DNA of 64,000 bases from a virus (IMGVR_UViG_3300032073_005220:62001-126000), one strand, 5' to 3'; shown: positions 5,896 through 56,927, numbered from the stretch's first letter. The notes: generated by a model not told the origin, from the sequence alone. Numbers and translations are program-made.

Positions 5896-6391
5896 ATTAT
5901 TATTATTTGTAGGAGTCGTATTAGTATTATTTGGCGTATTTAAGCCCGATTTATCTAATTTGTCTTTGCCTGTAGGTGGTAATACTGTATGCGTAACATC
6001 TAATCATGTTACAGATGCTCCTGCCGATGAAGTATTATTAAATAAAGCTAGAGCTATTACTGAAGTATTACTTGCTTCTGATGATTCTACCAGAAAAAGC
6101 GATTGTATAAAACTATCTTCTTTATACTGTGATATTGCAACACTAATAGAATTAGACGAAACAGACTTAGTAATTGCCGATACATCAACAATCAGAGAAG
6201 TAAATAGTATTGCTGGTAAGATGTTAAGATTAGATATAAAAGATAAATATCCTAATCTTGCTGAGTTAGCTAAAGATCTCGTTGTGACCAATATAGGTGA
6301 CGACGATGTGATTTTAGATGAAGAACTTAGACTTAAAGCTGTAGAGGCTTTTCGAGCATTAAGCTGGGCATTTTGGGAGGGTAGTAAATAA
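5885..6391 (+). CDS. Membrane-anchored or secreted hypothetical protein
   Basis: 168 aa with an N-terminal hydrophobic segment (NKLLLFVGVVLVLFGVF) that could be an uncleaved anchor or a signal peptide. The body is helical and acidic with three cysteines, two of them close together (DCIKLSSLYC), which could form a disulfide outside the cytoplasm. It overlaps the upstream gene by 11 nt, and its stop overlaps the ATG of the papain-like peptidase by 1 nt, so the two are probably coupled. A chaperone or inhibitor role for the peptidase is conceivable from this coupling only. Confidence 0.7.
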   Translation: MQNKLLLFVGVVLVLFGVFKPDLSNLSLPVGGNTVCVTSNHVTDAPADEVLLNKARAITEVLLASDDSTRKSDCIKLSSLYCDIATLIELDETDLVIADTSTIREVNSIAGKMLRLDIKDKYPNLAELAKDLVVTNIGDDDVILDEELRLKAVEAFRALSWAFWEGSK

Positions 6392-7317
6392 TGCCAAGAA
6401 TGACCCCAAAAAACTTATATGATGCTTATAGACAAGGATATAACGGATGTCTGTGGGAAGAACACGTTTTCGCAGAACTAATAGATAGCTCAAGATATGG
6501 TTATTTTAAAGACGGGGCTAAAAAAATTAAAGATAGCGGAAAAGGCAAACTGTCAACTCCTTTTATGTCTGTATTAAAATTTGATAAAAATGCATATATA
6601 GAGAGACAAACTACAGGAGATTGTGTGTCTCACGCAACTCGAAACGCATGTGACATAACGAGAGCAGTAGAAATCGACATTAAGGGAGACAAAGAAAGTT
6701 GGATTGCCAGAGGTGCTACTGAAGCTATATATGGATGCAGAGGTCATGGTGGCCAAGGAATGAGCTGTAGTCGTGCAGCTACTTTTGTTACTCAATCCGG
6801 AGGAATATTAGTTAGAAAAAATTATCCTGGTGTTGCTAACTTTTCTAAATACAATGGCTCTATGGGCGCTAAATGGGGCTCCAGAGGTTTACCAGATAAA
6901 GTTATAGACAAAGCAGATGATCATCAAGTAAAAACAGCTTCCCTAATAAGAACTGTTGAAGAAGCTAGAGATGCTTTGGCTAATGGGTATGGATTAAGTG
7001 TTTGTAGTAATTATGGATTTTCCAGCAAAAGAGATAGCAAGGGATTCGCTAGAAAAAGTGGGTCCTGGAATCACGCAATGTCCTGGACGGCCTGTGACGA
7101 TACTGGTAAAGAACCTGCTTTTCTTATACAAAACAGCTGGGGCAAATTTAATAGCGGAGGGCATCCAGAATGGGGTCCAATTCCTGATGGTTCTTTTTTA
7201 ATACATGCTGATGTTGCAGAAGGGATGCTTCGACAAAATGGGGCTTATGCCTTTAGTGATTTTAATGGATTTCCTCCACAGAAACTTCCTGATTATGGCT
7301 TCGGAGATTATTTATGA
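6391..7317 (+). CDS. Papain-like (C1-type) cysteine peptidase
   Basis: 308 aa. The papain catalytic order is present: Gln73 (oxyanion) and Cys78 in RQTTGDCVSHA, His228 in GSWNHAMSW, and Asn248 in FLIQNSWG. These are the Q-x5-C, H and NSW hallmarks of clan CA peptidases. There is no signal peptide or pro-domain of classic type; the first 60 residues precede the core. It sits at the end of a run of membrane proteins and overlaps the next small ORF by ATGA. Possible jobs are virion-protein maturation, wall-peptide cleavage during lysis, or an effector. Peptidase assignment is strong; substrate unknown. Confidence 0.88.
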   Translation: MPRMTPKNLYDAYRQGYNGCLWEEHVFAELIDSSRYGYFKDGAKKIKDSGKGKLSTPFMSVLKFDKNAYIERQTTGDCVSHATRNACDITRAVEIDIKGDKESWIARGATEAIYGCRGHGGQGMSCSRAATFVTQSGGILVRKNYPGVANFSKYNGSMGAKWGSRGLPDKVIDKADDHQVKTASLIRTVEEARDALANGYGLSVCSNYGFSSKRDSKGFARKSGSWNHAMSWTACDDTGKEPAFLIQNSWGKFNSGGHPEWGPIPDGSFLIHADVAEGMLRQNGAYAFSDFNGFPPQKLPDYGFGDYL

Positions 7318-7475
7318 GACTATTAGATAAGATTGCACTTAACAGTTTAATTAAAACCATTACTAGTTTTATACTAGCTATATTAAAAATGTTTGCCCCA
7401 AGTAAATCTGACAATATAACTCCTAGAGAGAGAAAACGTCCTGTACTTGACTTTCTTAAAAGATGGATGAAATAA
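7314..7475 (+). CDS. Small basic amphipathic/membrane peptide (53 aa)
   Basis: 53 aa, coupled to the peptidase gene by an ATGA overlap. The N-terminal half is a hydrophobic to amphipathic helix with basic flanks (LIKTITSFILAILKMFA). The C-terminal half is strongly basic (PRERKRP...FLKRWMK). No family recognised. The shape, a small cationic single-helix peptide after a peptidase in a membrane cassette, is compatible with a membrane-active lysis or anchoring peptide. The overlap and codon continuity support a real gene. Confidence 0.55.
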   Translation: MRLLDKIALNSLIKTITSFILAILKMFAPSKSDNITPRERKRPVLDFLKRWMK

Positions 7476-7479
7476 AATT

Positions 7480-7728
7480 ATGAGCAAAATCTTACTTAGT
7501 GCAATTATTAGCTTGCCTTTAATATTCGGTCAGTTTTTCTTTACCAATGTAGTCAACCCACGTTCTTACAGCACAACAGCTATCGTTGCTTTGGTTGGTG
7601 CCAAAATAGCTGCACAAAAAGATGTTGTGAAAAAATACAAAAGAAAAGATTGTCCTGTCTGTAAGGGTAAAGGCTGGTATATCAGTGGTGACGGTATAGC
7701 TAAAATAAGCTGTCAATACTGTGAGTAG
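7480..7728 (+). CDS. Membrane-anchored DnaJ-like CxxCxGxG zinc-knuckle protein
   Basis: 82 aa. Residues 1-24 form a hydrophobic segment (ILLSAIISLPLIFGQFFF) like a signal anchor. The C-terminal 25 residues contain CPVCKGKGWY, then CQYC four residues from the end, resembling one DnaJ zinc-finger repeat with two Cys pairs. Such knuckles bind zinc and unfolded peptide in DnaJ; here the domain stands alone. Last gene of the membrane cassette, 4 nt after the preceding small ORF. Confidence 0.7.
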   Translation: MSKILLSAIISLPLIFGQFFFTNVVNPRSYSTTAIVALVGAKIAAQKDVVKKYKRKDCPVCKGKGWYISGDGIAKISCQYCE

Positions 7729-7783: not shown

Positions 7784-8863
7784 ATGTCAGATATACAAAA
7801 AATAGACACTAGTAAGTCTATAGATCATGGTGGACTTACCGTTAGGCATCCATTCGGTGAAGGAGAAGGTCGTGACGCTAAGATATCTAGTCAGGACATC
7901 AAGACTCAAGCAGATAATTTATTAAATAAGTTTAAACCATTAAGAAGGTTTGAAGCAAAGACATTCTCATCCTTGTACTCTATGATGAATGATGGAACTC
8001 TAGGAATATATCAGTCTGACCTACCCTATCCTGGATTATCTAATTTTACATTAAAAACAACAATTGATCTAGGCATTCCTGCATTCTCTCTTAATGCCCA
8101 ACATTATATCTTTAATTATGGAAACTATCAGTACGTTATGTGTCCTGATAGTAATATTAAATATTTAGATTCAGCTTTTAATATAGCTGAAATTGATATT
8201 AATAATAGATTTGACTCTATTTTTGTCAAAGATACCAATACCATATTTTCTGTAATAGATAGAACTGTTTATGAAATTGACTTATCAAATAACACCAGTT
8301 CTGTATATGGAACTCTAGATAGTTCTATAATATATCCAATGTCTTATATTTTATATGACTCGATAAACAATAAATTTGTTGTAATAGATGGAGAAGAAAC
8401 CTCTGACAATATATATGTATTAGATAGTTCTCTAAATATCATTTTTACTATAAATATGACGTCAAGTTATACCGGGAAAATACCTACATGTATATTTGAT
8501 AATAAAAACGGTACTATTTTAATTATTTTACAAAATACAAATTTAGAATCAGAATTGTTAAACCTACAATTAGACTTATCTGATAATAGCATCTCAGAAA
8601 TAAATGCATCAAATATAATTTATAAAAAATATTACTTAGATATATTTAATAAGTATAGTGTGCAAAACGATGGTACGAATTCTGTTATATATGATAACTC
8701 CAACACTTTAGTTTCTTTTCCTGTTAATAAATATCAACATATTCTAAATATCAATCCAGTTACTGATACAATAATTGTGAAGCAGTATGACGGCAAAAAA
8801 TGTGTTTATGCATTAAGCACTATTACCTCTTCTAAACCTCAAAAAATATTAGAATTAGATTAA
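7784..8863 (+). CDS. Predicted beta-propeller-like fibre protein
   Basis: 359 aa. After an N-terminal helical region (residues 1-60) the protein is a long series of beta strands with repeated patterns such as NKFVVIDG, NIYVLDSS, GTILIILQN and DTIIVKQYDGK. These look like blades of a WD/NHL/YVTN-type propeller, with roughly 40-residue periodicity by eye. It starts the fibre operon behind the stem-loop/TATAAT region. Its TAA overlaps the next ATG (TAATG), and no Shine-Dalgarno lies near that next start. Probably a virion or host-contact component; the propeller is a structural inference. Confidence 0.75.
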   Translation: MSDIQKIDTSKSIDHGGLTVRHPFGEGEGRDAKISSQDIKTQADNLLNKFKPLRRFEAKTFSSLYSMMNDGTLGIYQSDLPYPGLSNFTLKTTIDLGIPAFSLNAQHYIFNYGNYQYVMCPDSNIKYLDSAFNIAEIDINNRFDSIFVKDTNTIFSVIDRTVYEIDLSNNTSSVYGTLDSSIIYPMSYILYDSINNKFVVIDGEETSDNIYVLDSSLNIIFTINMTSSYTGKIPTCIFDNKNGTILIILQNTNLESELLNLQLDLSDNSISEINASNIIYKKYYLDIFNKYSVQNDGTNSVIYDNSNTLVSFPVNKYQHILNINPVTDTIIVKQYDGKKCVYALSTITSSKPQKILELD

Positions 8864-9456
8864 TGAGTAATTTAGTAATAGCACAATCTGGAGTTCAACA
8901 GACACCCACACCCACTCCGAATCGTTCTGCAACACCAACTCCAACACCAAGTGTTACATCTACCCCTATAGTGGTCACCGTTACTCCAACTGCTACATCT
9001 ACAGTAACGCCTACTCCTACTCTTACCAAAACACCAACCCCTACCCCAACAACATCTCCTAGACCAATATCTATATTACATCACCCTCAATCTAAAACAA
9101 TAGACATAGAAGAAAGACAAAATTGGTTTTTTAGAACAACCACAGACAGTGATTCTACTCATTACTATTCTTGGCAATACTCCGACAATGGGGGTTCTGA
9201 TTGGAATTTTATTACTGTAAGCGGAACCGCTAACACTTCTAAAGAATCTAATCCAACGTCTTACTTATTCTTAAATAATCTCACGCCCGCTCAACATAAC
9301 AATCAATACAGATGTCAGATTACTAACGGAGTATTTACTACTGAAACAAATGCGGCCACACTTACAATATTAACAGATATCAATATCACGACACAACCAG
9401 TAAACGCTACTATCTCAAGCAGTGGCACAGCAACATTTTCCATAGGTGCAGAATAA
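8863..9456 (+). CDS. Pro/Thr-rich linker plus Ig-like module; first piece of split adhesin
   Basis: 197 aa. Residues 14-67 are a low-complexity Pro/Thr/Ser linker of TPTPT units, likely extended. A complete Ig-like module follows (about 70-170) with YYSWQYSDNGG and YRCQITNG. The last 22 residues (from ITTQPVNATIS to FSIGAE) are the first strands of another Ig-like module whose remaining strands begin the next ORF (NYQWQQSKDNG). Stop and next start overlap as TAATG. Coupled translation of two interacting chains is one reading; see the findings. Confidence 0.82.
   Translation: MSNLVIAQSGVQQTPTPTPNRSATPTPTPSVTSTPIVVTVTPTATSTVTPTPTLTKTPTPTPTTSPRPISILHHPQSKTIDIEERQNWFFRTTTDSDSTHYYSWQYSDNGGSDWNFITVSGTANTSKESNPTSYLFLNNLTPAQHNNQYRCQITNGVFTTETNAATLTILTDINITTQPVNATISSSGTATFSIGAE
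8896..9064 (+). repeat. Pro/Thr-codon low-complexity repeat tract
   Basis: Imperfect repeats of ACACCAACNCC-type codons for TPTPT units, interrupted by short Val/Ser segments. The third codon positions vary, so the repeat is conserved at protein level rather than being a fresh DNA slippage tract. It encodes a flexible stalk between the start of the protein and its Ig-like module. Confidence 0.8.
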
Positions 9457-12400
9457 TGTCTATCAATTATCAATGGCAACAATCTAAAGACAACGGAACA
9501 AGCTATGGAAATATCTCAGCTACTGGATCAACTTTACAAATAAACCATATCAAACCCAACCAACACAATTATCTTTATAGGTGTCGAGTTAACAGAGATG
9601 GCAGCAGTAAGTATAGGTACAGCGATCCTGCCAAACTTACAGTTTTATCAGAGATATCTCTTGGTAAATTACCTAGCAATGTTTCTATTGATGACGGAAA
9701 TCTTTCTTTAAGCCCAACTGTTACTGTTAATAGCAGCGCTACAACATCTTTTCAGTGGCAATATTCTGATGATGAAGCTATCAATTATTACGACTTACCA
9801 TCGGCTACAGGATCTGGACTGTCTTTAACTAGTTTATCTAGTGCAAACAATAACTGGCTATATAGACTGCAGGCTAAAAGTTATTATTACTCAGGCATAG
9901 TTAATACGGTTAAATCAAACAATACTCTAGTTCATATCGAAAATGATTTACCTAAACTACAAATATGGAGACAACCTCAGCACTATTATGGAACAGGACA
10001 ACCCGAATTTGAAGTTTTAGTTGCTAGCACAGGATTAAACAGCAACAATATTCCAAATACTTTTTACGATAATTCTGCAACAGATATTACATACGCATGG
10101 GAATATTCTTTTGATGGTCAAAATTGGAGACCAGCAACATATCAATCTAGTGGACAAAATAAAATATACGCGTCAAACAATATAGCTGGTGTTCAATATC
10201 GAGTGAATGTCTCTAAAAGTGGCCACTCGGTAGAGTCAGCATCTGCTTCAATCATACAAGAATTCTGCTTTCCTCCATACTCAAATAATTTTGATGATGA
10301 ATCTAAAATATATAGCATGAATCATTTTGACATCAGAAGCTCTAACGGAAAGACAACTTTAGGACTATTTAGTAATTGTCCTCAAATTCTAGAAACTGCA
10401 GAACGCAGAGCCAATATTAAGATGTTGAGCCTAGAATCTGAAGGAAATAAGTATGATCTAGTTTTTAATATGATTAGAAGTACAGATAGTCTCACAGTAA
10501 AGCCTTACAACTTAGCAATAGAGGATATATCTCTATTTAAAAACAACACAATAATTAAGAAGGCTAGTGTGAATCCAGATTCAATAGAGGATGTAAAAAC
10601 ACCATTCGATCTAAATTATTCATCATATAATAGCACTATAACAATATCACGCCCTGATATTTCTGCTGGTGCTGCTGGCAGGCCATACGGAGACGGGTAT
10701 TGCATAAATCTTGCTAATCCCTTGCACGGTGATAACTTAAATAATATAAATTATAAAAACTTTATTAGCAATTGTATAGCTAAGTCTAGTAGTATACGAT
10801 ATGGGGCTATTAAGGTAGGAGTTACAACTACAGGCAACTCCTCCGTAGATACTGATTTAATATCTAAACTTCCAACTGAATTAAAAATTAAAAATGGAAA
10901 TGACACAATTGTTAACTTAAGGATTAGTTATGAAATAATAGGTAGCGCAAGCGCTATATCAAAAGATACATTAGCAAATATAAATGTAGTAATATTAAAT
11001 CAAGGATACAATTGGTCTTCTAGAAGCTTTACTCAATCAGAACAGGAAGCTTTAAAATATCATGTAAATGACGGAGGAGGATTAATTACATCCGAATGGG
11101 TCTTATGGAATAGTGCTTACGGAAGATTTGACTACCTGAAAGAAGTGTTTGCTGCAGAACCTAGTCGTGACTACCAACTTGAAAATCAAGTGAGATATTA
11201 TAAATATAATTCTAATTTAATTATAAATAACGAGGTTTCAGACGATTTTAAATTCGCCCCTACCAACGTTGCTGGAGGAACAGAAACTACATTTACTAGT
11301 TTCAAAACAGGATCTCAATTATTCTATATCAAAGAACCAAAACCGATTTCTATTATTAATTTAAAACAAGCAAAATTCAATTTGCTAGATTTATTCTATT
11401 TCACAGCACAAGAGGCAGAAAATACAACCAACTCAACTCTTGATGGACTTAATAAGTTTTTTACAGGATCTTTTCATTGGGAAGGCAAAGTATCAAAAAA
11501 TATAAAAATTGGAGGAGCTTTATATTGGATATATAAATCTTTGATTGAATACCACAGAAAAGCTGACGAGGGAGTAGATAAACCCAATTCTGCTTGGTCC
11601 TTAGGCAGAGGTCTTATAGGAGATAAAACCGATGGTATAAATCACATACTTAGCGAGAATGGGTTAAATATATCTGATTTTACATTCAGTAATCTGGAAA
11701 CAATTAAGGAGTCTCCCGAAGAAGAATTAACAGCCAACGACAATTTTTGGAAAGATATGTCTAAATTGTTAAGTTCTTTAAAGCCGTCTAATAGTAATTA
11801 CAGGCATAACAGAGAAGTAGTAACAAACAAATGTAATATAGTACAACAACCAAATTTTAAGTACAAGCCCAACCCTTTGCCGTCAGGAAACATACTAATA
11901 GATTGTTTCGTAACAAATCCTTCAGAACTTCCTATTTCGTATTGTCTGCAAAAAAACAGTGGAAACAATTTTGTTGATATACAACAAGATAGTTTTGTAA
12001 ATAATAGAATAATATTTTCGGGGCTTCAGTCATCTGATCTTGATACTGGAATAAATCATAGGATATTATTCAAAACTTCATATGAATATCCTGAAGGAAC
12101 AGGAACACCTTCAGATTCTTTCCAATTTGTTAGCAGGAAAACAGGTAGACCCAGAAAAGATATTACCGAAGGACTTCAAGACTATTCTCAGAGCACGATA
12201 ACCGATGGTAATGGAGTTTTTGTAAAATTCATCGAATCTAGTGGAGCTAACATACATGATGGTATTTCTTCATCTTCTTTTGGAAATTCAGGAAATATTA
12301 TTAGTTGGCAATATTCTTATGATAATGTTAATTTTTACAATACAACATCTGGCGTTAATGTATCAGGAAGCAGTAGTATTCTAACTTTAGGAAGTGGCAA

Positions 12401-12806
12401 TCACAATAAAAATATTAGATATTCTTTCCATCCTTTAACAAACTTGAAGCATACTGACAGTGTAGGTCAAAATACTCCCATTATTAAATCCATAGCATAT
12501 AGTTCATCAAATAGCTACGACCCTCAAGGAGCCGTGACTTTTAGTTCTAATATAGATAACTATTATACTTCTGGAGGACAGCAGTATTGCAGTATGTCTG
12601 TCTACTTAAATAATACAGGAATTAATACAAATATTAATCCTTCAGATATTACATGGGAACAATACAATTACTCAACGAACTCTTATGATGGCCTGCCCAG
12701 CCTTTCTGGTAATAGGCTCTTTGCTGTCAGCGGAATTAAAGTGTCTTTGATAGACACCTACAAATTTAGAGCCATAATCAACAACAGGATATTTTATCTA
12801 TCATGA
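9456..12806 (+). CDS. Giant Ig-like fibre/adhesin, second piece; contains a GATase/ThuA-like segment
   Basis: 1116 aa. It starts in the middle of an Ig-like module (NYQWQQSKDNG, YLYRCRVN). More modules follow with the same W-x-YS-x-D signature (FQWQYSDDEA; YAWEYSFDGQNW; near the end SWQYSYDNVNF and TWEQYNYSTNSY). The middle is different: about residues 460-600 hold NVVILNQGYNW, LKYHVNDGGGLITSEW and YGRFDYLKEVF, resembling ThuA/class I amidotransferase-like domains. The last module lacks its final strand, which opens the next ORF (TALLINVTQQP). Ends by ATGA overlap. Likely a virion fibre or baseplate adhesin; the enzyme-like middle has no visible catalytic triad. Confidence 0.82.
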   Translation: MSINYQWQQSKDNGTSYGNISATGSTLQINHIKPNQHNYLYRCRVNRDGSSKYRYSDPAKLTVLSEISLGKLPSNVSIDDGNLSLSPTVTVNSSATTSFQWQYSDDEAINYYDLPSATGSGLSLTSLSSANNNWLYRLQAKSYYYSGIVNTVKSNNTLVHIENDLPKLQIWRQPQHYYGTGQPEFEVLVASTGLNSNNIPNTFYDNSATDITYAWEYSFDGQNWRPATYQSSGQNKIYASNNIAGVQYRVNVSKSGHSVESASASIIQEFCFPPYSNNFDDESKIYSMNHFDIRSSNGKTTLGLFSNCPQILETAERRANIKMLSLESEGNKYDLVFNMIRSTDSLTVKPYNLAIEDISLFKNNTIIKKASVNPDSIEDVKTPFDLNYSSYNSTITISRPDISAGAAGRPYGDGYCINLANPLHGDNLNNINYKNFISNCIAKSSSIRYGAIKVGVTTTGNSSVDTDLISKLPTELKIKNGNDTIVNLRISYEIIGSASAISKDTLANINVVILNQGYNWSSRSFTQSEQEALKYHVNDGGGLITSEWVLWNSAYGRFDYLKEVFAAEPSRDYQLENQVRYYKYNSNLIINNEVSDDFKFAPTNVAGGTETTFTSFKTGSQLFYIKEPKPISIINLKQAKFNLLDLFYFTAQEAENTTNSTLDGLNKFFTGSFHWEGKVSKNIKIGGALYWIYKSLIEYHRKADEGVDKPNSAWSLGRGLIGDKTDGINHILSENGLNISDFTFSNLETIKESPEEELTANDNFWKDMSKLLSSLKPSNSNYRHNREVVTNKCNIVQQPNFKYKPNPLPSGNILIDCFVTNPSELPISYCLQKNSGNNFVDIQQDSFVNNRIIFSGLQSSDLDTGINHRILFKTSYEYPEGTGTPSDSFQFVSRKTGRPRKDITEGLQDYSQSTITDGNGVFVKFIESSGANIHDGISSSSFGNSGNIISWQYSYDNVNFYNTTSGVNVSGSSSILTLGSGNHNKNIRYSFHPLTNLKHTDSVGQNTPIIKSIAYSSSNSYDPQGAVTFSSNIDNYYTSGGQQYCSMSVYLNNTGINTNINPSDITWEQYNYSTNSYDGLPSLSGNRLFAVSGIKVSLIDTYKFRAIINNRIFYLS

Positions 12807-15800
12807 CTGCTTTACTTATCAATGTAACTCAACAGCCTGCTCTTTTAAGTTCTTTAGAAAATGTAAAACTGAATACAGATATATATTACGATAATAATAG
12901 ACAAAAAGATTTTTTACAAGAAAATAATACTCTTATTTATGAGTGGTTGTACTCTGTTGATGATGGTAAAACTTTCAGAACACTCAATGAAAATTCTGCT
13001 AATCTTACTATAGATTTAGATACTATTAATATAAATTTTATATACAAACTAAAAATATCTATTGATAGGCCTTCATCAGAGATAGCATCAAATACAGATA
13101 GTTCTACGGGTTTTATTACAAATAAAAGTAATAAATTTTTATTATCTAATCAGGAAAGCGACAATTCTGAAGTTTGGTACAGCAATAATATTAAAATTAA
13201 TCACAGTATAGATATAGCAGATATAATTGTAGATTTTGCTTTGAACGACATTATCGAACAATTAGAAGATCAGATTGATTTTGGTTTAACTTCAGATGCA
13301 ATAGATATCCAAGAAAATGAGTCGTCACAAATTTCTATTATTCCAGATGACGAAACAGCCACGATTGTTGAAGTAGATACAGATGAAACTAGCAGCACAT
13401 TATGGTTTCCGGGTCTAATGGATTGCTATACTCCGGCCACAATGACTAGTTGCGGCATCACCATAAATTATTGTATTTATGAACAGAAAAGTATATTGGT
13501 TGATGGTTTGGGTAATTGTGGCAGCATAAATGACTGTCCAGGAAATGGCTGCGTTCTAGACGGAGGTCCTGTAATTACAGCCAACGGACCTGTCGGCAAT
13601 TGGCTAAATGTTAAGCTGGGAGATTCATATACAGCATGCTGGAAAAATTTTGAGGGTGCCATAGACCCCCAGCAGTGGGACGGACAGAGAAGTAAATCAG
13701 TAGACTCATGCGGCGAACCGATAATAGGTGATTCTCAATATGACTCTTTGGTGCTTTGCGATGACCCTGGTAAGGCATATGCTAGTGCGTATTTCTGCGC
13801 AAATCCGCCTGGTGAAGGCAATATGTCGTGTCCCGGACAAATAGTTAGTAATCGGTGTGACCCAGGTGGAGCAATGAATGACATGCCGTGCTTAGGAACA
13901 TTTCAACGATTGGCTGTTCCCAGTAACAAGTATCGCTGCCACCAAAATAAATACTATTACCCGTCTACCTGCAGGTGTAACGGCAAGATCCTTAGCTCTA
14001 TAGATACAAATCTCGCCACATGTCAAGCAGACCAAGACCAATGCAAAACGGTTGATCCTCCAAATTTATCATATTATTGTAGGGAATTAGGCGTTACTGT
14101 TCCTGTTTTGAGAGAAGTAGATGATGATGGAAATTACACCGGAGTATTGTATGTAAACTTCGGACCAGTTGCCGCACCTCCCGGAACCACAGAAAGTGGT
14201 AGGCTTGGCTGGGCTTTTCCCAAAGTATACACAGCACACTTACAAGGTTCAGCAAAAGGGGCGAATTACTCGCTATCTAAAAGCATTACCTTAACTGTTA
14301 AAAGTAATTCAGGGAAAACATCGAGCGAATGTTCTATTAAGACACTAACAGCTGCTAGCGATCCCTGGGGAGGTTGTATTGAAGCGGGTAATTGTTATGA
14401 ACATGATGACATACCTAAAACACTGCGTTGTTTTGCTAGTGATAAGTATTACAAAATTCAAGGATTAGGAAATAAAACCTTTAGCTGCTGGACAGAATGT
14501 AACAAATTTACCCCAGCAACGGCAACGGTGCCTGCGTTTAGAATTTATCCTGTAACCACCAGACCTGAAAGTTTGTATGGGTTATTATCATTAGCAGAAG
14601 CAGAAGCTAAACTAGAAAAAGATAATAAAGGTAAGGCTTATGCTGTAAGAAGGGACACTCTAAGACCAGGTTTTGGGTCAACATGCGTAGAAAGTTGTAA
14701 AAACTCTAAGGGATTTCCTAGTAAAAACTCCACAAGATTCTCCACTAATGGAGGTATAGTACAAGGATCTCTTGGGTTGGTTAATCCGTGCGTGAAATGT
14801 GGTTGCAAAGAAGATAAAGATTGTGGTGGATGCGGCGTATGTATGGATGGAGAGTGCATAGAATATCCTAATGACAATCCTAATTCGGCAGCGGTCCATC
14901 CTTGTGAAGCAGCAGCGAAAGGTGGAGGTACAGTATCATGTTGTGTTGGTTACGATGCTTTAGGAAAGAAAATAGTTAGCTGTGCTAAGTCGAAATATTG
15001 CGAAACTTGTCAAGATCCGCAAGTTGATGATCAAAGTATTCCAACAGGTGCTATTGTCGGTACTGTTGCTAGAGTAAGTTTTGACTCAAATGATCCTGCA
15101 AAAGATTGTTGTAATGGAGTAGTTTATGACCCTAGATGCCAAATTTGTGATGTTTCTACAGTTAGGCCTAAATGTAGACCTCCTGAAGAATGTAGATTAA
15201 CAGGAGACACTACTACTTGGGTTGATGAGGATGGATTTGAACAACAGTCTGACAATTATCATTGTATAATTCCTCCGTGCCCTCCTTGTCAAATAGAAGC
15301 TGATGATTATGACACAACAGGAAATTGCATAAGTTATAACGACACTCCAGAGGCTAAACAAAATTGTGAAGAATGTGAACCAATAGATAATCCCGATTAT
15401 CCTGGCGATAGCGATGAGCCTCTAATTCCAAATTTTTATTCTACACTAGACGAAGGACAGACATGCTGCCAAACAGGAGCAACTACCTTTGTTCCGTGCT
15501 CAAACTGTTGTGCTGATTCAGAAACAGGCTACAATACCTGTTGTCCTGGTGCAGACGACACTTGCTGCGACGGAGCTTGTTACGCAACAGTTGCCGGCAG
15601 AACTATCTGTTGTAACGGAAAAGAAGCCGCTTTTGGGGATGCTTGTAATCTTTGTAGCTTTGACGAATTCGGACAACAGGAAAGTAAATGCGATACTTAT
15701 TATAGTTGTTGCAGTAAAACTGTATCTGGAGTAGAATTTTTTACAGGGTGCTACAGCAATACCTACTGTGACTGTGAAACATGTAGCGGCGGAGAAGTAG

Positions 15801-15877
15801 TAACGGTTGAATCAGACGATCCAGATGATTGCTGTTACGCTGGTGCAGCTCCTCAGTCTATTTTCTATGAACCATAA
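12803..15877 (+). CDS. Cysteine-rich giant fibre/adhesin, third piece
   Basis: 1024 aa. The first 110 residues complete the preceding Ig-like module and add another (YEWLYSVDDGKTF). After a Ser/Asp-rich linker, residues about 205-1015 contain roughly 75 cysteines in motifs such as CVKCGCKEDKDCGGCGVC, CCPGADDTCCDGAC and YCDCETC. The spacing suggests many small disulfide-knotted modules, similar in style to EGF- or keratin-associated repeats, and unusual for a phage protein. Extracellular disulfides are more likely than zinc because there are few histidines. Coupled to the previous piece by ATGA. Confidence 0.82.
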   Translation: MTALLINVTQQPALLSSLENVKLNTDIYYDNNRQKDFLQENNTLIYEWLYSVDDGKTFRTLNENSANLTIDLDTININFIYKLKISIDRPSSEIASNTDSSTGFITNKSNKFLLSNQESDNSEVWYSNNIKINHSIDIADIIVDFALNDIIEQLEDQIDFGLTSDAIDIQENESSQISIIPDDETATIVEVDTDETSSTLWFPGLMDCYTPATMTSCGITINYCIYEQKSILVDGLGNCGSINDCPGNGCVLDGGPVITANGPVGNWLNVKLGDSYTACWKNFEGAIDPQQWDGQRSKSVDSCGEPIIGDSQYDSLVLCDDPGKAYASAYFCANPPGEGNMSCPGQIVSNRCDPGGAMNDMPCLGTFQRLAVPSNKYRCHQNKYYYPSTCRCNGKILSSIDTNLATCQADQDQCKTVDPPNLSYYCRELGVTVPVLREVDDDGNYTGVLYVNFGPVAAPPGTTESGRLGWAFPKVYTAHLQGSAKGANYSLSKSITLTVKSNSGKTSSECSIKTLTAASDPWGGCIEAGNCYEHDDIPKTLRCFASDKYYKIQGLGNKTFSCWTECNKFTPATATVPAFRIYPVTTRPESLYGLLSLAEAEAKLEKDNKGKAYAVRRDTLRPGFGSTCVESCKNSKGFPSKNSTRFSTNGGIVQGSLGLVNPCVKCGCKEDKDCGGCGVCMDGECIEYPNDNPNSAAVHPCEAAAKGGGTVSCCVGYDALGKKIVSCAKSKYCETCQDPQVDDQSIPTGAIVGTVARVSFDSNDPAKDCCNGVVYDPRCQICDVSTVRPKCRPPEECRLTGDTTTWVDEDGFEQQSDNYHCIIPPCPPCQIEADDYDTTGNCISYNDTPEAKQNCEECEPIDNPDYPGDSDEPLIPNFYSTLDEGQTCCQTGATTFVPCSNCCADSETGYNTCCPGADDTCCDGACYATVAGRTICCNGKEAAFGDACNLCSFDEFGQQESKCDTYYSCCSKTVSGVEFFTGCYSNTYCDCETCSGGEVVTVESDDPDDCCYAGAAPQSIFYEP

Positions 15878-15898: not shown

Positions 15899-16366
15899 AT
15901 GAGTAGTATTAGAATTAAAAATTTACCTGCTTCTACTGGAGTATTAACTACAGATAACGTAATTGTTAGCTCTAATGACTTAAGCTATAAACTTCCGATA
16001 TCTGATATGAAAAAAGAATTTAATAAACAAAGTTCTACCTCCTTGACTTCTAGTACTGAAACAAATTACGATACTTCTACTAGTGATATTGGGACTATAT
16101 TAAACGTAAATAAAAGCATAGTTTCTACCATAAAAATTACTACAGCAACATCAAATGGAGCAAATATTGGGGATTCTATTGATGTTATTAACACTAGTTC
16201 TTTACAAGATGTTAGAATATTAGCTCAATCTGGGGTATATATAAGAAGCATGGGTAATCATTTAGATTTAACCAGGCAATATAGCGTAGGTAAAATTACT
16301 AAATTTTCCAGTAATGAATGGATGCTTACTGGAGACTTTTTCACTTCTCCTAGTGGTACATTCTAA
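15899..16366 (+). CDS. Tail-fibre-like protein with IKNLPAS N-terminus
   Basis: 155 aa. The N-terminus (SIRIKNLPASTGVLTTDNVIVSSN) matches the short attachment motif at the start of many phage fibre and tail-collar proteins, where I-x-x-LP is followed by a D-x-hydrophobic-V strand. The rest is beta-rich and Ser/Thr-rich with no cysteine, ending in a C-terminal WMLTGDF strand. CCGGAGATAA lies upstream. Its stop overlaps the next ATG. Probably a short fibre or fibre-base adaptor for the large adhesin. Confidence 0.68.
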   Translation: MSSIRIKNLPASTGVLTTDNVIVSSNDLSYKLPISDMKKEFNKQSSTSLTSSTETNYDTSTSDIGTILNVNKSIVSTIKITTATSNGANIGDSIDVINTSSLQDVRILAQSGVYIRSMGNHLDLTRQYSVGKITKFSSNEWMLTGDFFTSPSGTF

Positions 16367-16758
16367 TGAAAAATAACAAACAATTGGAAAGCCTATCTAA
16401 CAAGATAGCAAATGATTCAGGATTAACAGGCTGTGAAGAATATGGTAGTATTCTGTTAACTATTATGATAATTGGAATAATTTTAAATTCAATTAGAGTA
16501 ATTCAAGAGTGCAATAGTAGCAAATTAAACAAAATGTCTGATGAAGAAAAACATTCTTTTCTAAAAGATCAGATTAAAACTTTATCTAGTAAACGTGGAT
16601 GGTTTACTAAAATGCGTATTCGCAAAGTTATGAGAAGAGAACTAAAAAAAGAAACATACAAACAGTATGGTGCAAATATCGTAGATAGTATTTTAAATAG
16701 TGGAGAAAATATCACGGATGATGAACTTTCATCAATTCTGGAGGCTTTAAATGTTTAG
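16366..16758 (+). CDS. Single-TM basic hypothetical protein
   Basis: 130 aa with one transmembrane segment at about residues 27-44 (SILLTIMIIGIILNSIRV). A strongly basic region follows (KRGWFTKMRIRKVMRRELKK) and then an acidic tail. No family recognised. Overlaps the fibre gene by 1 nt and the GlsB-like gene by 8 nt. It may be a lysis-related or envelope protein. Confidence 0.68.
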   Translation: MKNNKQLESLSNKIANDSGLTGCEEYGSILLTIMIIGIILNSIRVIQECNSSKLNKMSDEEKHSFLKDQIKTLSSKRGWFTKMRIRKVMRRELKKETYKQYGANIVDSILNSGENITDDELSSILEALNV

Positions 16759-17002
16759 TATAATTATATGGTGTGTATATGGTATATTCGTCGGAGCTAT
16801 TGCTAAAAGCATTGTTCCTGGAGAAGAAAATTTTGGCTTTTTTAAGACAATAGCATTAGGAGTAGCTGGCTCATACATGGGCGGCGCTGTATTATATCTA
16901 CTGGGGCAGTATAATGCACTAGAGCCTTCGGGCATATTCATGGGAATAGCTGGTGCTGTTTTAGCTTTAGTATTATATAATAAATTAGTAAATGACAAAT
17001 AA
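16751..17002 (+). CDS. GlsB/YeaQ/YmgE (transglycosylase-associated) family membrane protein
   Basis: 83 aa, three hydrophobic segments. It has the family hallmarks GIFVGAIAKSIVPGEE near the N-terminus, then a GVAGSYMGGAVL turn and a glycine-rich GIAGAVLAL helix. The family is a small stress-associated inner-membrane protein group in bacteria with no proven biochemical function. Presence in a phage between fibre and glycan genes is unusual. Overlaps by 8 and 11 nt make it a real member of the operon. Confidence 0.85.
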   Translation: MFSIIIWCVYGIFVGAIAKSIVPGEENFGFFKTIALGVAGSYMGGAVLYLLGQYNALEPSGIFMGIAGAVLALVLYNKLVNDK

Positions 17003-18855: not shown

Positions 18856-21454
18856 TAAAATACCAGAAGATTTTGATTGGGAGTTTTATCTGGATTCTCA
18901 CCCAGATCTCATCAAAGCAGGTATTAATACAGAAAAATTGGCTCAATATCACTATGTTACTTATGGACATAAAGAAAACAGAATTTATAAAAAATCTCAA
19001 AATGAAATCTTAGGACACTTTGATAGGCATCAGGAGTCTGAAAATTCCAATATCGTGCTCTTCGTGCAGTGGTACGACGATCCTATTACACTAGAAAATA
19101 GAACTAAATGCTTACAACGGAACATTGAAAATCAACACATAGATTTTATAAACATATTCTATGAGCCAAACTCGCAATATTCTTTGTCTCGTGCAGCAAT
19201 AAATAATCCCAAAGTTGCTCTCATTGAGCTTGACGAAAGAATGAACTATGGTTTATGGATGGAATTTGCAGACAGAAATTATGCAAACAGCATTAAACTT
19301 TTATCTAATTCTGATATTTATTTTGACAACACCTTACAATTAGTTAAACAAGCTTCTTTCAGCGACAATAGAATACTAGCAATTACAAGGAAAGACGAGG
19401 ATTTAAACGGCAATATAGTTATTAGTAAAGAACGGTTTTCGAATGATGCAATAGACATTAATCCTCTCTATTCTCACGACTGCTGGATATATAAAGACAA
19501 AATCAAATCCATACAATACAATAACATTAAACTTAGTATAGGATATGAAAACTGCGACAGGATATTTAAACAGTATTGTCAAGAAAACAATATTGAGTTT
19601 ATTAATTTATTCCCCAATGTTAACGGAATTCATTTAGATCATAGATCTGAAAAAATAAGACCCGCTTACGATCTCAGCAAAGCACAAAAAATCGTTGAGG
19701 CAAACATAAAACTGCCAGAAATACTAGATAATCATGAAGATAATATAAAAAAAAAATTAATTCTATACACAACATACTATAAATCTAACAATACACAAAG
19801 ACAGCATGAGCTCGACATTGCATTAACAAAAAATATAAACAGCTCTTACTTTGCGAAAGTTTATATATTTCTAGACACAGGCGTAGAACTACCCAAATCT
19901 ATTCGAAATAAAAATTATGAAATTATTCATAGTAATGATAAACAATCTTATTTTGATTGGATATCTCACTCACAAAAGTATTTAAATGACACAGACATTT
20001 CGGTGTGGGGCCACACAGATATTGTGTTTAATGATACAATAAATATCTTATCTGATTATTTTACAGGAAAACCTACATTAGTTTGCTTAAGTAGATACGA
20101 GCAAAATCAACTATGTTCTGAACCCCATTGGTCTCAAGACACTTGGGCTTTTCAAGTTAAAGACATTAGAAATATCAAGTTTATTAATGACACAAAAATT
20201 AGGATGGGACATGCTAGATGCGACAACAAAATAGCCTTTGTTTTTGCTGTAAATGGTTGGGTTATGAAAAATCCTTGTTTTGATATTGTAACAGAACATA
20301 TTCATTATAGTCAACATAGATCCTATAAAATTAATGACGACGAAGTAGTGGGAGGTATGTGTTATATACATCCTTCTCGTGATCACAGCGTTTCTAAAAT
20401 AGATTATGCCATAGTCAATAAAAATCATAACCAAACATATAATGAGCATATTGCTATTTGGTCCTTAGAGATGTTAGACAAAACAAATAGTGTGGATATT
20501 GTTAAAAACTTTAAAACAATAGGGAGTATGTATAATAAAAATCATTTAATGGGAGGTTGGTCTACCGTTAATAATTTATTAGACAAATATCAAGAATCTA
20601 AAACTGCTAAGATTAACTTAGTAACATTTACTTGGGAGACTTTTTTATCAGGGCAATATGATGTGTTCGAACAACCTTGGATAGGAATAGATCATCTAGT
20701 AAATTTTGTACCGCAATATTATCGTAAAATTTCAAAAAATATATTACCTGAAAGTAATTTTTTTAATCGTATTCTACATAAAAGTAATGTATTAGAAAAT
20801 TGCAAAGGTATAATCTATACTTCAGATAGTACAAGATTGAATGGCCTTAATTGTAAATACACAAAACATATACCTAAATGCACCATTCATCATCCTGTTA
20901 TATTAGACCCAGAATCTAGACAATTCAATTTAGACGCGTATTTCAATAATAAAAATAAAAAACTTATTAATTTAGGTTGGTTCAATAGAAACTTTGGTTT
21001 TTTTGAAAGACTTAACATTCTTGACTTTGAAAAACTTTTTGTTTTTGGAGGCTTGTCTGGGTATAAAGGTTATGTTTTTACAGAAGACATGTATTATCAC
21101 GGTATTGATATGATTAGTACAGAAGTATCTGCTAGACTTTCTGATGAAGAGCTGAACAACCTTTTAAGCGAGAATTTGATATTCGTTAATTTATATGACT
21201 CTTCAGCTAATAATGCTATCATTAATTCTATTCAAAGAAATTGTCCAATAGTCATTAACAGGCTCGATGCTTGTGTAGAATATTTAGGCTCTGATTATCC
21301 ATTATATTACGACTACCCAGATGAAATACAAGACTTGTTGTCAGAAAGCTCTATAGCTTCTGCTCATGAATATTTAAAACAATTAGATGTTAATAGTTTT
21401 AGTATAGAAGCTTTTATAAGTAAAGTTAATAATTTCGTTGGAAAGGTATATTGA
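18848..21454 (+). CDS. 868-aa multidomain glycosyltransferase with internal duplication
   Basis: Four parts. Residues 6-50 are a small domain (DWEFYLDSHPDL, HYVTYGHKENR) often found attached to glycosyltransferases. Two related domains follow: about 55-290 (NSDIYFDNT, SHDCWIY, HLDHRS) and about 300-530 (HTDIVFNDT, SQDTWAF, HYSQHRS), whose matching motifs show a tandem duplication. The last 300 residues look like a GT-B C-terminal half (GWFNRNFGFFERL, VNLYDSSANNAII, ACVEYLGSDYPLYY), a type seen in marine viral genomes. Donor and acceptor unknown. ATG overlaps the fucose-synthase stop by 8 nt. Confidence 0.8.
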   Translation: MRNKIPEDFDWEFYLDSHPDLIKAGINTEKLAQYHYVTYGHKENRIYKKSQNEILGHFDRHQESENSNIVLFVQWYDDPITLENRTKCLQRNIENQHIDFINIFYEPNSQYSLSRAAINNPKVALIELDERMNYGLWMEFADRNYANSIKLLSNSDIYFDNTLQLVKQASFSDNRILAITRKDEDLNGNIVISKERFSNDAIDINPLYSHDCWIYKDKIKSIQYNNIKLSIGYENCDRIFKQYCQENNIEFINLFPNVNGIHLDHRSEKIRPAYDLSKAQKIVEANIKLPEILDNHEDNIKKKLILYTTYYKSNNTQRQHELDIALTKNINSSYFAKVYIFLDTGVELPKSIRNKNYEIIHSNDKQSYFDWISHSQKYLNDTDISVWGHTDIVFNDTINILSDYFTGKPTLVCLSRYEQNQLCSEPHWSQDTWAFQVKDIRNIKFINDTKIRMGHARCDNKIAFVFAVNGWVMKNPCFDIVTEHIHYSQHRSYKINDDEVVGGMCYIHPSRDHSVSKIDYAIVNKNHNQTYNEHIAIWSLEMLDKTNSVDIVKNFKTIGSMYNKNHLMGGWSTVNNLLDKYQESKTAKINLVTFTWETFLSGQYDVFEQPWIGIDHLVNFVPQYYRKISKNILPESNFFNRILHKSNVLENCKGIIYTSDSTRLNGLNCKYTKHIPKCTIHHPVILDPESRQFNLDAYFNNKNKKLINLGWFNRNFGFFERLNILDFEKLFVFGGLSGYKGYVFTEDMYYHGIDMISTEVSARLSDEELNNLLSENLIFVNLYDSSANNAIINSIQRNCPIVINRLDACVEYLGSDYPLYYDYPDEIQDLLSESSIASAHEYLKQLDVNSFSIEAFISKVNNFVGKVY

Positions 21455-21455
21455 T

Positions 21456-23090
21456 ATGCTACCAACAAAGATATTATTGTTTAGTAATCCCAGACATGGC
21501 ACAACTTTTTTAATTGACAATATTAATAAGAATGAAAATATTAGGATGTGTTATGAGCTTTTGACTTTAGGAGAGGGTGTTGATAAGCACTATCATGAAT
21601 GCTTTACTAAAATTGTAGATAAACAAGCTTTAGATTTAGCAGACTGTGAGACGTATAACCAAGAAAGAAAACAAGATGAGACAAATTACTTTCAACATAT
21701 CTCTGAAAAGTTTAATGGTATTCAAAATATTAAAACTATAGGATATAAAATTTTTGCACAACAAATGGATGCTCCTTCAACGCAAAATAAAGTAATGTTA
21801 GAAAATGTCCTTGATCAATTTGACAAAGTTATATTTCTTGATAGAGATATGGTTTCTTATGCTTTTTCTTGGCTCAATGCAGGGAAATATGGATGGAGCG
21901 TGCTTAAGAGATCCTCGAAAGATACAAATTTAGTAGCTAGTACAAGAGACACGCAGGACATCGTCAGGCAAACTACGCATAAACATAAGCTTTTTGCAAT
22001 AGCTCATAAATACTTAGAAAAAAATAATATACCTTATTTAGATTTAAACTACAACGATTTAGATAAAGCTCCTGAATTATTGTCTAATTTTTTAAATACA
22101 GAAATACTATTTAAGAATAGTTTTAGACCCAATAAATATGACTATAAAACATTTTTAACTAATAATCCAGAATTAAGCAAAGCGGTCGATGATCAAAACA
22201 TTCTAATTGATTTAGAAAATACAACTGCTCCCCCAATGCCTGATTTTAAAAGACAAGACAATAAATTGGAGGCTATTAATGTTTTACATACGGGGAGCGA
22301 AGAAAGTTCTGAAGTAAATCATTTCGTAAATCAGATAATTAAATCTTTCGAATCCTGCGACTCAGACGCTAAGCTTGCTAAGAATATAGATCTAAATATA
22401 GCCACATCTTCTAATTCTATATTGAATTTTAGCACAGAACATATTGATATGCTCAAGGGCTTTTTCAGGAATGTCAATGTTTCAACCATACAAATTCCAC
22501 AAAATAAAGATTTTTATTTTAATGAAATGCCTGACAATTTAGATGATATTAGTTTAGAATATGGATTAAAGTCTGGTCCTAACTATGTGTTTTTTCGTTG
22601 CATGGATTTAATGAAAAACTATAATACTTGTTTGTTTTTAGAAATAGACACATACTTAAAAAATAATTGGCTTTCAGCAATAGCTAAGTATGTAAATAGT
22701 TGTGGCAATTTTTGGATTAGCGGACCTGCATATAGCGGTAATGCTGGAATAGTTGATCCTGATTTTTTGCTTAGTCATCATATTAACGGAGGAACATGTA
22801 TATACAATACAGGAAATCATAATTTTCAAGCCTTCATACAATGGTGCGAAAAACTATTTCCTATATTAACAAAAAATAGTCCAAAATTGCCTTATGATTA
22901 TTTAATACCTGTGCTCTATTTAATATATGTAAATTGCCACCATAAGGAAAGTTGGAGAATTGTTCAACTAGCTAAGCAAAATTATATCTACAATAACTTA
23001 ATATGCAATTTAAGCTTACCGGAAGATGTTAGTGAAACAAAAAATCCTATTCCGGGTTATATCATACATGAAAAATTAAAACTTGACTAA
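21456..23090 (+). CDS. Sulfotransferase-like domain fused to a glycosyltransferase-like domain
   Basis: 544 aa from the ATG at 21456, chosen because GGAAAGG lies 9 nt upstream; a TTG 18 nt earlier is less likely. Residues 5-17 (ILLFSNPRHGTT) match the PAPS-binding P-loop region of sulfotransferases (PRSGTT), and DKVIFLDRDMVSYAFSW follows where the 3'-phosphate-binding RD-P segment lies. The C-terminal half (about 255-540) has INVLHTGSEESSE, FLEIDTYLKNNWL and SGPAYSGNAG, like GT-A enzymes with an E-x-D motif. It may sulfate and extend the same glycan. Last gene of the first glycan cassette. Confidence 0.68.
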   Translation: MLPTKILLFSNPRHGTTFLIDNINKNENIRMCYELLTLGEGVDKHYHECFTKIVDKQALDLADCETYNQERKQDETNYFQHISEKFNGIQNIKTIGYKIFAQQMDAPSTQNKVMLENVLDQFDKVIFLDRDMVSYAFSWLNAGKYGWSVLKRSSKDTNLVASTRDTQDIVRQTTHKHKLFAIAHKYLEKNNIPYLDLNYNDLDKAPELLSNFLNTEILFKNSFRPNKYDYKTFLTNNPELSKAVDDQNILIDLENTTAPPMPDFKRQDNKLEAINVLHTGSEESSEVNHFVNQIIKSFESCDSDAKLAKNIDLNIATSSNSILNFSTEHIDMLKGFFRNVNVSTIQIPQNKDFYFNEMPDNLDDISLEYGLKSGPNYVFFRCMDLMKNYNTCLFLEIDTYLKNNWLSAIAKYVNSCGNFWISGPAYSGNAGIVDPDFLLSHHINGGTCIYNTGNHNFQAFIQWCEKLFPILTKNSPKLPYDYLIPVLYLIYVNCHHKESWRIVQLAKQNYIYNNLICNLSLPEDVSETKNPIPGYIIHEKLKLD

Positions 23091-35134: not shown

Positions 35135-36178
35135 ATGATTATAACTTATTTTCGTTCTTCCAGCTATAACACGCACAACATGTGCCCTCAGCAATATTAT
35201 TTTGAATATGTTCTTGGGTGGAGAGGTAGTTCTGGACTAAAAGCTGACAAAGGTACTATTGTACACAAAGTATTGGAAATACTAGCTGTTATAAAACAAG
35301 GTTTACAAAACGATAAAAAAGAAATTATAGACGATATACTAGGGAATATTAGTACTACAGGATATGATTTAGAAGAAATTATTAAACAAGTGTATGATTA
35401 TTATTCTTCTCATAATAGTCACCATAACTGGAAACCCAGAGATAGTAAAGACTGTAGAGAATGGGTCTATAAAGCTTTGGAATTTAACGAGGGAATGTTT
35501 GATCCTAGAAATAGAGACATCTTAGAACCAGAGCAGCATTTTGATTTTGAAATAGATAAGACATGGGCAGACTATGATTATGACACTTCAGAAGGTAAAT
35601 TATCTGGTAAACTGGCACTAAAAGGAACAATAGATTTAATTACTTTAGTCAATAAAGACACCATAGAAATAATTGATTGGAAAACAGGAAAAAGGCGAGA
35701 TTGGGCTACGGGAAAAGAAAAGACTCAAGAAAAACTGGAGGTAGATCCTCAATTAAGGATATATTACTATGCTATTAAAAATTTATATCCCAATATTAGA
35801 TATGTCATTTTCTCTATATATTTTATAAATGACGGAGGTCCTTTTTCTGTATGTTTTGACGATTCTGATATGGAAGCAACAGAACACTTATTAAGACAAA
35901 AATTTGAACATATCAAACACACAAGAAAACCATTCTTGAAAAAAAGCTGGATGTGTAATAAGCTGTGCCATTTTGGAAAAACAACTTTTGAAGATACTCA
36001 TATAGAACCTATGGAAGAATACAGAGATAATCAAAGAACAACACCGGGTTATGTGATGACTAAATGCGAACAAGTTAAACACGATTTAGACTTGTATGGT
36101 ATCGACGCTGTCACTAATATATATAAACACCCTAATCACAAATTTGGAAAGTATCAAGCTCCCGGATCAACAGAATGA
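35135..36178 (+). CDS. RecB/Cas4-type PD-(D/E)xK exonuclease, possible Fe-S cluster
   Basis: 347 aa. DLITLVNKDTIEIIDWKTGK supplies the D ... D-x-K nuclease motif (GTIDLI, then IIDWKTGK). DPQLRIYYYAIK follows as the conserved Q-hydrophobic-Y helix. Cysteine 17 (NMCPQQYYFEYV) together with C-terminal CNKLC and TKCEQ gives the one-plus-three arrangement of AddB/Cas4 Fe-S nucleases. Probable role: DNA end processing during recombination or degradation of host DNA. TAATATG spacing and a 4-nt overlap with polymerase III alpha. Confidence 0.85.
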   Translation: MIITYFRSSSYNTHNMCPQQYYFEYVLGWRGSSGLKADKGTIVHKVLEILAVIKQGLQNDKKEIIDDILGNISTTGYDLEEIIKQVYDYYSSHNSHHNWKPRDSKDCREWVYKALEFNEGMFDPRNRDILEPEQHFDFEIDKTWADYDYDTSEGKLSGKLALKGTIDLITLVNKDTIEIIDWKTGKRRDWATGKEKTQEKLEVDPQLRIYYYAIKNLYPNIRYVIFSIYFINDGGPFSVCFDDSDMEATEHLLRQKFEHIKHTRKPFLKKSWMCNKLCHFGKTTFEDTHIEPMEEYRDNQRTTPGYVMTKCEQVKHDLDLYGIDAVTNIYKHPNHKFGKYQAPGSTE

Positions 36179-38055: not shown

Positions 38056-38227
38056 AAAATTTGCAGATTTATCGATAAATGCAAAATTTGTACATAATAA
38101 TCTTGAGTATCAAAAGTTACAACCAATCAAAATATCTTGTTGCAAGTCCGTCAACGCTTGTGTAGCATCTCAACCTGCTAATAAAGTATTTATCAACCCC
38201 AACCAGGAAGTTAAAGTAAATGTCTAA
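38045..38227 (+). CDS. 60-aa ORF between polymerase halves
   Basis: 60 aa beginning inside the last codons of the N-terminal polymerase gene (11-nt overlap) and overlapping the exonuclease gene by 8 nt. The middle has two cysteines in tandem and a third (ISCCKSVNACV). No family recognised. Packed overlaps on both sides support a real coding gene; it might be a small clamp- or polymerase-binding subunit, which is speculation. Confidence 0.55.
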   Translation: MITKKFADLSINAKFVHNNLEYQKLQPIKISCCKSVNACVASQPANKVFINPNQEVKVNV

Positions 38228-38918: not shown

Positions 38919-38924
38919 TATCTT

Positions 38925-56919: not shown

Positions 56920-56927
56920 ATAAAATT

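What the first reader, a model, noticed from the sequence alone, without database searches (positions are those of the whole stretch)
8863..12900. Ig-like domains cut at two ORF junctions: candidate donor-strand-like split adhesin
The 8863 product ends with the first strands of an Ig-like module (ITTQPVNATIS ... FSIGAE), and the 9456 product starts with its continuation (NYQWQQSKDNG). The 9456 product ends without the last strand of its final module, and the 12803 product starts with it (TALLINVTQQP). Both cuts fall exactly at overlapping stop/start signals (TAATG, ATGA), and no Shine-Dalgarno lies close to the later starts. The C-terminal strands of one chain could complete the truncated module of the next, non-covalently, as in donor-strand pili. 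Frameshift fusion or assembly errors are alternatives. I know of no described phage fibre built this way.
Basis: partly seen in the sequence, partly recalled or inferred. Interest (0 to 1): 0.85.

Follow-up and report, generated by a model that had tools for sequence, protein, structure and literature searches.

The report
Phage adhesin: one Ig domain, two chains
A family of large uncultured tailed phages makes a surface fibre in which one immunoglobulin-like domain is always encoded half on one protein and half on the next, so two chains probably have to snap together to complete it.

Summary
The first junction is real and conserved. ORF1 (8863-9456) ends with strands A-B of an Ig-like module and ORF2 (9456-12806) starts with strands C-G. 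An Ig profile matches each half and reads gaplessly across the cut. The same cut occurs in six IMG/VR phages. Three are close relatives of the window. Two (L373, L372) are distant homologues (ORF2 about 24%/21% identical overall), yet their ORF2 starts at the same strand. In L373 ORF1 runs 18 residues past strand B, and in L372 it runs 481 residues further and ends 31 nt before ORF2. That excludes assembly error and makes frameshifting very unlikely. Uncut Ig proteins are the rule elsewhere: no genuine case among 560 bacterial modules, and only these phages in a phage sample with 304 modules.

The second junction does not hold up as described. The start of ORF3 is strand A of ORF3's own module; ORF2's last module merely lacks half of its G strand.

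The claim that no Shine-Dalgarno is present is wrong: both starts have median-strength sites.

Best explanation: separate, coupled chains that rebuild one Ig module non-covalently, giving a fibre joint and possibly a branch point. Pairing of the halves is inferred, not shown.

The parts
7784..8863 (+). ORF0, 359 aa, no family match; separate gene here, first gene of the variable cargo
   Evidence: conserved in L003-L005
8863..9456 (+). ORF1, 197 aa: Thr/Pro-rich linker, one intact Ig-like module, then strands A-B of a second module
9061..9378 (+). Intact Ig-like module 1 of ORF1
9373..9453 (+). Left half (strands A, A', B) of the split Ig module, ORF1 residues 171-197
   Evidence: HMM positions 2-24, E 2.4e-7 alone; dN/dS 0.16-0.20
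9444..9448 (+). AGGTG, Shine-Dalgarno-like site for ORF2, identical in L003, L004, L005
9454..9458 (+). TAATG stop/start overlap, junction 1 (BC loop)
9456..12806 (+). ORF2, 1116 aa: half Ig module, further Ig-like modules, conserved mid-domain, last Ig module without the lower half of strand G
9456..9647 (+). Right half (strands C-G) of the split Ig module, ORF2 residues 1-64
   Evidence: HMM positions 31-94, E 1e-17
11379..11822 (+). Conserved ORF2 mid-domain (IGGxxYWxxKSxIE...DGI...DF), shared with L373 and L372; shows that the ORF2s are homologous beyond Ig repeats
12786..12789 (+). AGGA, Shine-Dalgarno-like site for ORF3
12803..12806 (+). ATGA start/stop overlap, junction 2 (near a module boundary)
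12803..15877 (+). ORF3, 1024 aa: one complete Ig-like module then a long cysteine-rich region
12803..13150 (+). ORF3 N-terminal Ig-like module including its own A strand (TALLINVTQQP)
15899..16366 (+). 155-aa protein with weak matches to C-terminal parts of PHROG virion/tail families
   Evidence: phrog_21510, phrog_8780

Best explanation
ORF1, ORF2 and ORF3 are separate, translationally coupled chains of a phage surface adhesin. ORF1 carries strands A-B of an Ig-like module at (or near) its C-terminus and ORF2 begins at strand C of the same module. The two chains are made next to each other by the same ribosomes (stop/start overlap plus an ordinary ribosome-binding site) and most likely rebuild the Ig module non-covalently, so that this two-chain domain is the joint holding ORF1 to ORF2. 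In relatives ORF1 runs on from strand B into a Thr/Pro linker, and in one case a beta-propeller-like domain, so the joint can also act as a branch point. SHOWN: the cut, its conservation in six phages, purifying selection on both halves, absence of any conserved recoding signal. INFERRED: pairing of the halves, location on the virion, adhesion function. Junction 2 is a normal module boundary except that ORF2's last module lacks the lower half of strand G.
For: Both halves match one Ig profile and join gaplessly in all six phages; 0 of 200 shuffles as good in each. Same cut in L003/L004 (ORF2 about 57%) and L005. Same cut in L373 and L372, whose ORF2s are homologous by a shared mid-domain (L003-L373 E 8e-12) and align from residue 1 to residue 1 (window 1-264/274 to L373 1-282, E 3.6e-11, and to L372 1-291, E 9e-5). 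In L372 the gap is 31 nt with stops and in L373 it is TAA-CAA-ATG in frame. Orphan A-B strands have dN/dS 0.16-0.20 and are better conserved than the intact module 1 between the window and L005 (dN 0.125 versus 0.408). Starts have median Shine-Dalgarno strength. Such cuts are otherwise absent: 560 bacterial modules, 304 phage modules.
Against: No direct evidence that the halves bind each other; a complex could not be modelled with these tools and the full-length ORF2 model failed (pLDDT 29). Only five homologous loci beyond the window, two of them (L003, L004) closely related, and L005 holds just 39 codons of ORF2. Nothing shows that the proteins are on the virion. Junction 2 does not repeat the pattern.
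Confidence: 0.66

Rival explanations
1. The two half modules stay as separate chain ends that do not pair with each other: each is disordered, or completed by a second copy of itself (homotypic swap), and the conserved cut reflects only common descent from one old gene fission.
For: Gene fission with common descent explains one shared cut site; no binding evidence exists. Open chain ends followed by 18 or 481 further residues could be free tails.
Against: Both halves keep core Ig residues under purifying selection across a large divergence, and the two genes are adjacent and co-oriented in every case. A useless C-terminal A-B tail should decay.
Confidence: 0.24
2. Programmed -1 frameshifting (or stop readthrough) makes one continuous chain, as for other phage Ig-like extensions.
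For: Ig-like extensions of phage proteins are known to be made this way (PMC5009743, citing Fraser 2006). In the window family the ORFs are in -1 relation, and in L373 they are in the same frame.
Against: No codon before the stop can re-pair fully in the -1 frame in any of four phages (GAA to AGA, GCA to TGC). No downstream structure (z 0.1 to 2.0). The frame relation differs between relatives (2, 0, 1) and L372 has a 31-nt gap with stops after 481 further residues. Median Shine-Dalgarno sites are present.
Confidence: 0.06
3. Assembly or sequencing indels split a single gene.
For: The data are metagenomic.
Against: The same two cuts at the same place in two further contigs at about 57% identity, junction 1 in a third, and the same strand-level cut in two remote homologues.
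Confidence: 0.01
4. At junction 2 the first strand of ORF3 completes the G strand of ORF2's last module, as the first reader proposed (donor-strand style).
For: ORF2's last module ends before the lower half of strand G in all full-length relatives (RIFYLS, RIFYT, QIITEAT, STITVEE), and ORF3 starts within a few residues.
Against: Joining does not raise the Ig score. The strand is the A strand of ORF3's own module by alignment and by model. A joined chain would be several residues shorter than the tandem junctions that join two clear Ig modules (25-29 versus 31 or more).
Confidence: 0.12

Closest known systems
Donor-strand complementation in chaperone-usher pili
   Same: An incomplete Ig-like fold in one subunit is completed by a beta strand of a neighbouring subunit, non-covalently
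   Different: Here two N-terminal strands (A and B) are missing, the donor is the upstream chain at or near its C-terminus, no polymer of repeated subunits is evident, and it concerns one joint in an adhesin (pilus topology from general knowledge; pairing here not shown)
Phage genes in pieces (Aeh1 nrdA, T4 gene 60/39, Aeromonas phage 25 gene 43; PMC2988022)
   Same: A contiguous protein is encoded as two chains that must reassemble; conserved halves
   Different: Known cases are enzymes split with a homing endonuclease or an untranslated spacer between the halves; here the gap is -1, 3 or 31 nt, the protein is a structural adhesin and the cut is inside one small domain
Phage Ig-like domains added by programmed frameshifting (Fraser 2006, via PMC5009743)
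   Same: Ig-like modules on phage proteins, overlapping reading frames at the Ig-encoding region
   Different: There a whole Ig domain is an optional extension of a fused chain; here no slippery site, no stimulator, and the cut is inside the Ig domain
Cyanophage Ig-repeat proteins (P-HM1 PHM1_104, P-HM2 PHM2_106, S-BM3 SBM3_00202)
   Same: Tandem modules of the same Ig type, about 24-31% identity
   Different: One uncut ORF of 1.8 to 2.6 thousand residues beside neck or tail genes; no ORF2 mid-domain

Membership tests
Donor-strand complemented (chaperone-usher type) assembly | Acceptor Ig-like fold lacks one strand (G) | tested here: not met
   ORF2's first module lacks A and B; its last module lacks only the lower half of G
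Donor-strand complemented (chaperone-usher type) assembly | Donor strand is an N-terminal extension of the next subunit | tested here: not met
   At junction 1 the donor is the C-terminal part of the upstream chain; at junction 2 the N-terminal strand belongs to ORF3's own module
Donor-strand complemented (chaperone-usher type) assembly | Inter-chain strand pairing | not testable with these tools
   No complex prediction available; sequence joins gaplessly
Programmed frameshift Ig extension | Slippery site allowing re-pairing in the shifted frame | tested here: not met
   No full -1 re-pairing at junction 1 in four phages; +1 was not scored separately
Programmed frameshift Ig extension | Downstream structure or other stimulator | tested here: not met
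   Fold z-scores 0.1 to 2.0 downstream of the junctions
Programmed frameshift Ig extension | Constant frame relation between the two ORFs | tested here: not met
   Relations 2, 0 and 1 in the window family, L373 and L372
Phage genes in pieces | Both halves conserved, adjacent and together a complete protein | tested here: met
Phage genes in pieces | Intact orthologous gene exists in relatives | tested here: inconclusive
   Uncut Ig proteins exist (L026, L028, cyanophages) but no uncut protein with the ORF2 mid-domain was found
Phage genes in pieces | Mobile element or spacer between the halves | tested here: not met
   Gap -1, 3 or 31 nt
Phage surface Ig-like adhesins | Tandem Ig-like modules of phage type | tested here: met
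Phage surface Ig-like adhesins | Present on the virion and binding a surface | not testable with these tools
   No virion data; weak PHROG tail/head matches of neighbours only

The most novel reading that the evidence does not exclude
The split Ig module is a dedicated two-chain joint and branch point. Strands A-B of the ORF1 chain lock into strands C-G at the start of the ORF2 chain, ORF1 leaves the joint through the opened BC loop as a side arm (0, 18 or 481 residues, in one case a propeller-like head), and the main stalk continues in ORF2. Phages of this clade could thus exchange or add receptor-binding arms by swapping ORF1 alone.
Probability: 0.35. Interest if true: 0.85.

Novelty: new variant of a known kind. 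Interest (0 to 1): 0.72.

Why it matters
A naturally split Ig domain, kept at one loop through large sequence divergence, would be a new way for a virus to join and possibly branch the chains of a surface fibre without a covalent link. It would make receptor-binding arms exchangeable as separate genes and could give a new pair of complementary protein fragments for coupling proteins. It also warns that gene callers and domain annotation cut such domains unseen.

Tried and rejected
Assembly error or indel (rejected). Programmed frameshift or readthrough (rejected). Shared slippery site at junction 2 (only L003/L004 could slip at TTT, the window cannot; codons). Donor strand at junction 2 (not supported). 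AlphaFold2 of full ORF2: useless, pLDDT 29. L281 and L304 looked like cut modules but are alternative-start artefacts; L235, L261, L263, L264, L290 and L336 lie at contig ends. More homologues by the ORF2 mid-domain: none in 48 further records nor in phage isolates. Reverse transcriptase (diversity-generating element) near the FGE-type domains: none in five records. No paper describing a two-chain Ig domain in a phage was found, but the library lacks most subscription journals.

Full report
WHAT WAS CLAIMED.

CHECK OF THE OBSERVATION. The ORFs are where stated: ORF1 8863-9456 (197 aa), ORF2 9456-12806 (1116 aa), ORF3 12803-15877 (1024 aa), with TAATG and ATGA overlaps. Such overlaps are common elsewhere in this window, so they are not remarkable in themselves. 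Both later starts have Shine-Dalgarno-like sites of median strength for this genome: -3.7 and -4.1 kcal/mol against a median of -3.9 for 52 starts. The window is part of a 157,014-base IMG/VR virus record.

JUNCTION 1 IS A REAL MID-DOMAIN CUT. With an Ig profile built only from uncut modules, ORF1's last 27 residues match positions 2-24 on their own (E 2.4e-7, for a search space of one sequence). ORF2's first 63 residues match positions 31-94 (E 1e-17). The joined sequence reads as one module without a gap (67.6 bits against 50.3 for the right half), and none of 200 shuffles of the left half does as well. The cut lies in the loop between strands B and C.

JUNCTION 2 IS DIFFERENT. Adding the start of ORF3 to the last ORF2 module does not raise its score. 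The strand TALLINVTQQP is the A strand of ORF3's own first module: it aligns with the A strands of other modules with the proline (P12) invariant. In an AlphaFold2 model of that module (mean pLDDT 75.6, 14-sequence alignment) residues 3-11 form its first strand; the nearest solved folds are mostly Ig/fibronectin-like sandwiches, though no match is below E 0.001. What remains true is that ORF2's last module ends before the lower half of its G strand in all full-length relatives (RIFYLS, RIFYT, QIITEAT, STITVEE). A joined chain would be several residues shorter than the tandem junctions that join two clear Ig modules. Completion of that module by ORF3 is possible but unsupported.

CONSERVATION. 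Two contigs, L003 and L004, with ORF2 about 57% identical, have both cuts at the same place; L005 has the first cut. A sample of phage loci with Ig modules then led to L285/L373, a 199,884-base contig. A profile search of 50 records of the same phage clade added L372, in a 180,460-base contig. In both, ORF2 starts at strand C (MSLAYQWQ and MALTYKWQ) and ORF1 carries strands A-B after an intact module. Their ORF2s are homologues of the window's ORF2 beyond the Ig repeats: they share a mid-domain (L003-L373 E 8e-12) and align from residue 1 to residue 1, although overall identity in the alignment is only about 21-24%. After strand B, ORF1 has 0 more residues in the window family, 18 Thr/Pro-rich residues in L373, and 481 residues (Thr/Pro linker plus a BNR/sortilin-like propeller region) in L372. 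The frame relation and gap also differ: overlap of 1 nt, gap of 3 nt in frame, gap of 31 nt in another frame. The one constant is the strand boundary.

SELECTION. The orphan A-B strands have dN/dS 0.16-0.20. Between the window and L005 they are better conserved than the intact module before them (dN 0.125 against 0.408). The values rest on few codons and partly saturated synonymous sites, so they show purifying selection rather than a precise rate.

BASELINE. Apart from these phages, no ORF start truly cuts an Ig module in a sample of phage loci holding 304 modules, or in 78 bacterial loci holding 560 modules. Isolate cyanophages P-HM1, P-HM2 and S-BM3 have uncut Ig proteins, as have clade members L026 and L028.

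NOT A FRAMESHIFT. Programmed frameshifting is the known route by which phages attach Ig domains (PMC5009743). Here no codon before the stop can re-pair fully in the -1 frame in any of four phages, no structure lies downstream, and in L372 the two ORFs are separated by 31 nt with stops.

CONTEXT. ORF0 to the 155-aa gene sit between conserved genes (a papain-like protein at 6391, an 82-aa protein at 7480 and two small genes at 16366 and 16751). In most of about 80 relatives, as read from the match positions, little or nothing lies there. The operon is thus variable cargo. In L372 and L373 it lies elsewhere in the genome. ORF1 of L372 holds RCC1, laminin-G, FGE-type and propeller domains, a set that from general knowledge suits a receptor-binding protein; adhesion is therefore inferred.

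MECHANISM. Separate chains are made side by side by coupled translation. Strands A-B of ORF1 most likely dock onto strands C-G at the start of ORF2 and complete the module, forming a non-covalent joint. Where ORF1 continues past strand B, its chain leaves through the opened BC loop, and the joint can serve as a branch. The cut, its conservation and the absence of recoding signals are shown; pairing, virion location and function are inferred. I give 0.66 to the two-chain domain and 0.35 to the branch-point reading.

RELATION TO KNOWN SYSTEMS. It works like strand complementation in pili but is not a member of that group: the missing strands and the direction of donation differ. It resembles phage genes in pieces, of which the Aeh1 ribonucleotide reductase is a working example (PMC2988022), but without an invading element and inside one small structural domain. 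It is not a frameshifted Ig extension.

LIMITS. Six loci in all, two of them closely related and one holding only 39 codons of ORF2. The ORF2 model failed. No complex prediction was possible.

Noticed in passing
window 36175-40541: DNA polymerase III alpha is split into two ORFs (36175-38055 with PHP and polymerase NTPase domains; 38925-40541 with fingers, HHH and OB) with a 232-aa exonuclease-like ORF (38220-38918, judged by eye) between them and no intein sequence seen by eye.
   Followed up: partly
L218:1815-2774 (record position about 20815-21774, outside the window): The phage record carries a DUF1559 protein with an N-terminal methylation (pseudopilin) motif. From general knowledge this family is typical of Planctomycetota and may point to the host.
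   Followed up: no
window 6391-7728 and 16366-17002: A papain-like protein, an 82-aa CxxC protein and two small proteins form a conserved frame in about 80 IMG/VR contigs up to 230 kb; what lies between them is variable cargo. The papain-like protein has no match in isolate phages.
   Followed up: partly
L074:7784-9826 and L033:1930-3870: The papain-like gene matches in two pieces about 1 kb apart in two relatives, as if interrupted by an insertion (intron, intein or homing element).
   Followed up: no
window 49462-63635 (- strand): Two giant adjacent ORFs of 2485 and 2235 aa; the first has no PHROG match.
   Followed up: no
L373 ORF3 (L373:4158-6626, - strand) and L372 ORF1 (L372:7707-14261, - strand): FGE-type domains (the fold of many diversified phage receptor-binding proteins) without any reverse transcriptase found in the same records.
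   Followed up: partly
L373:6629-10633 (- strand), ORF2 C-terminus: A laminin-G domain appears to sit inside the last Ig-like module between its C strand and later strands.
   Followed up: no
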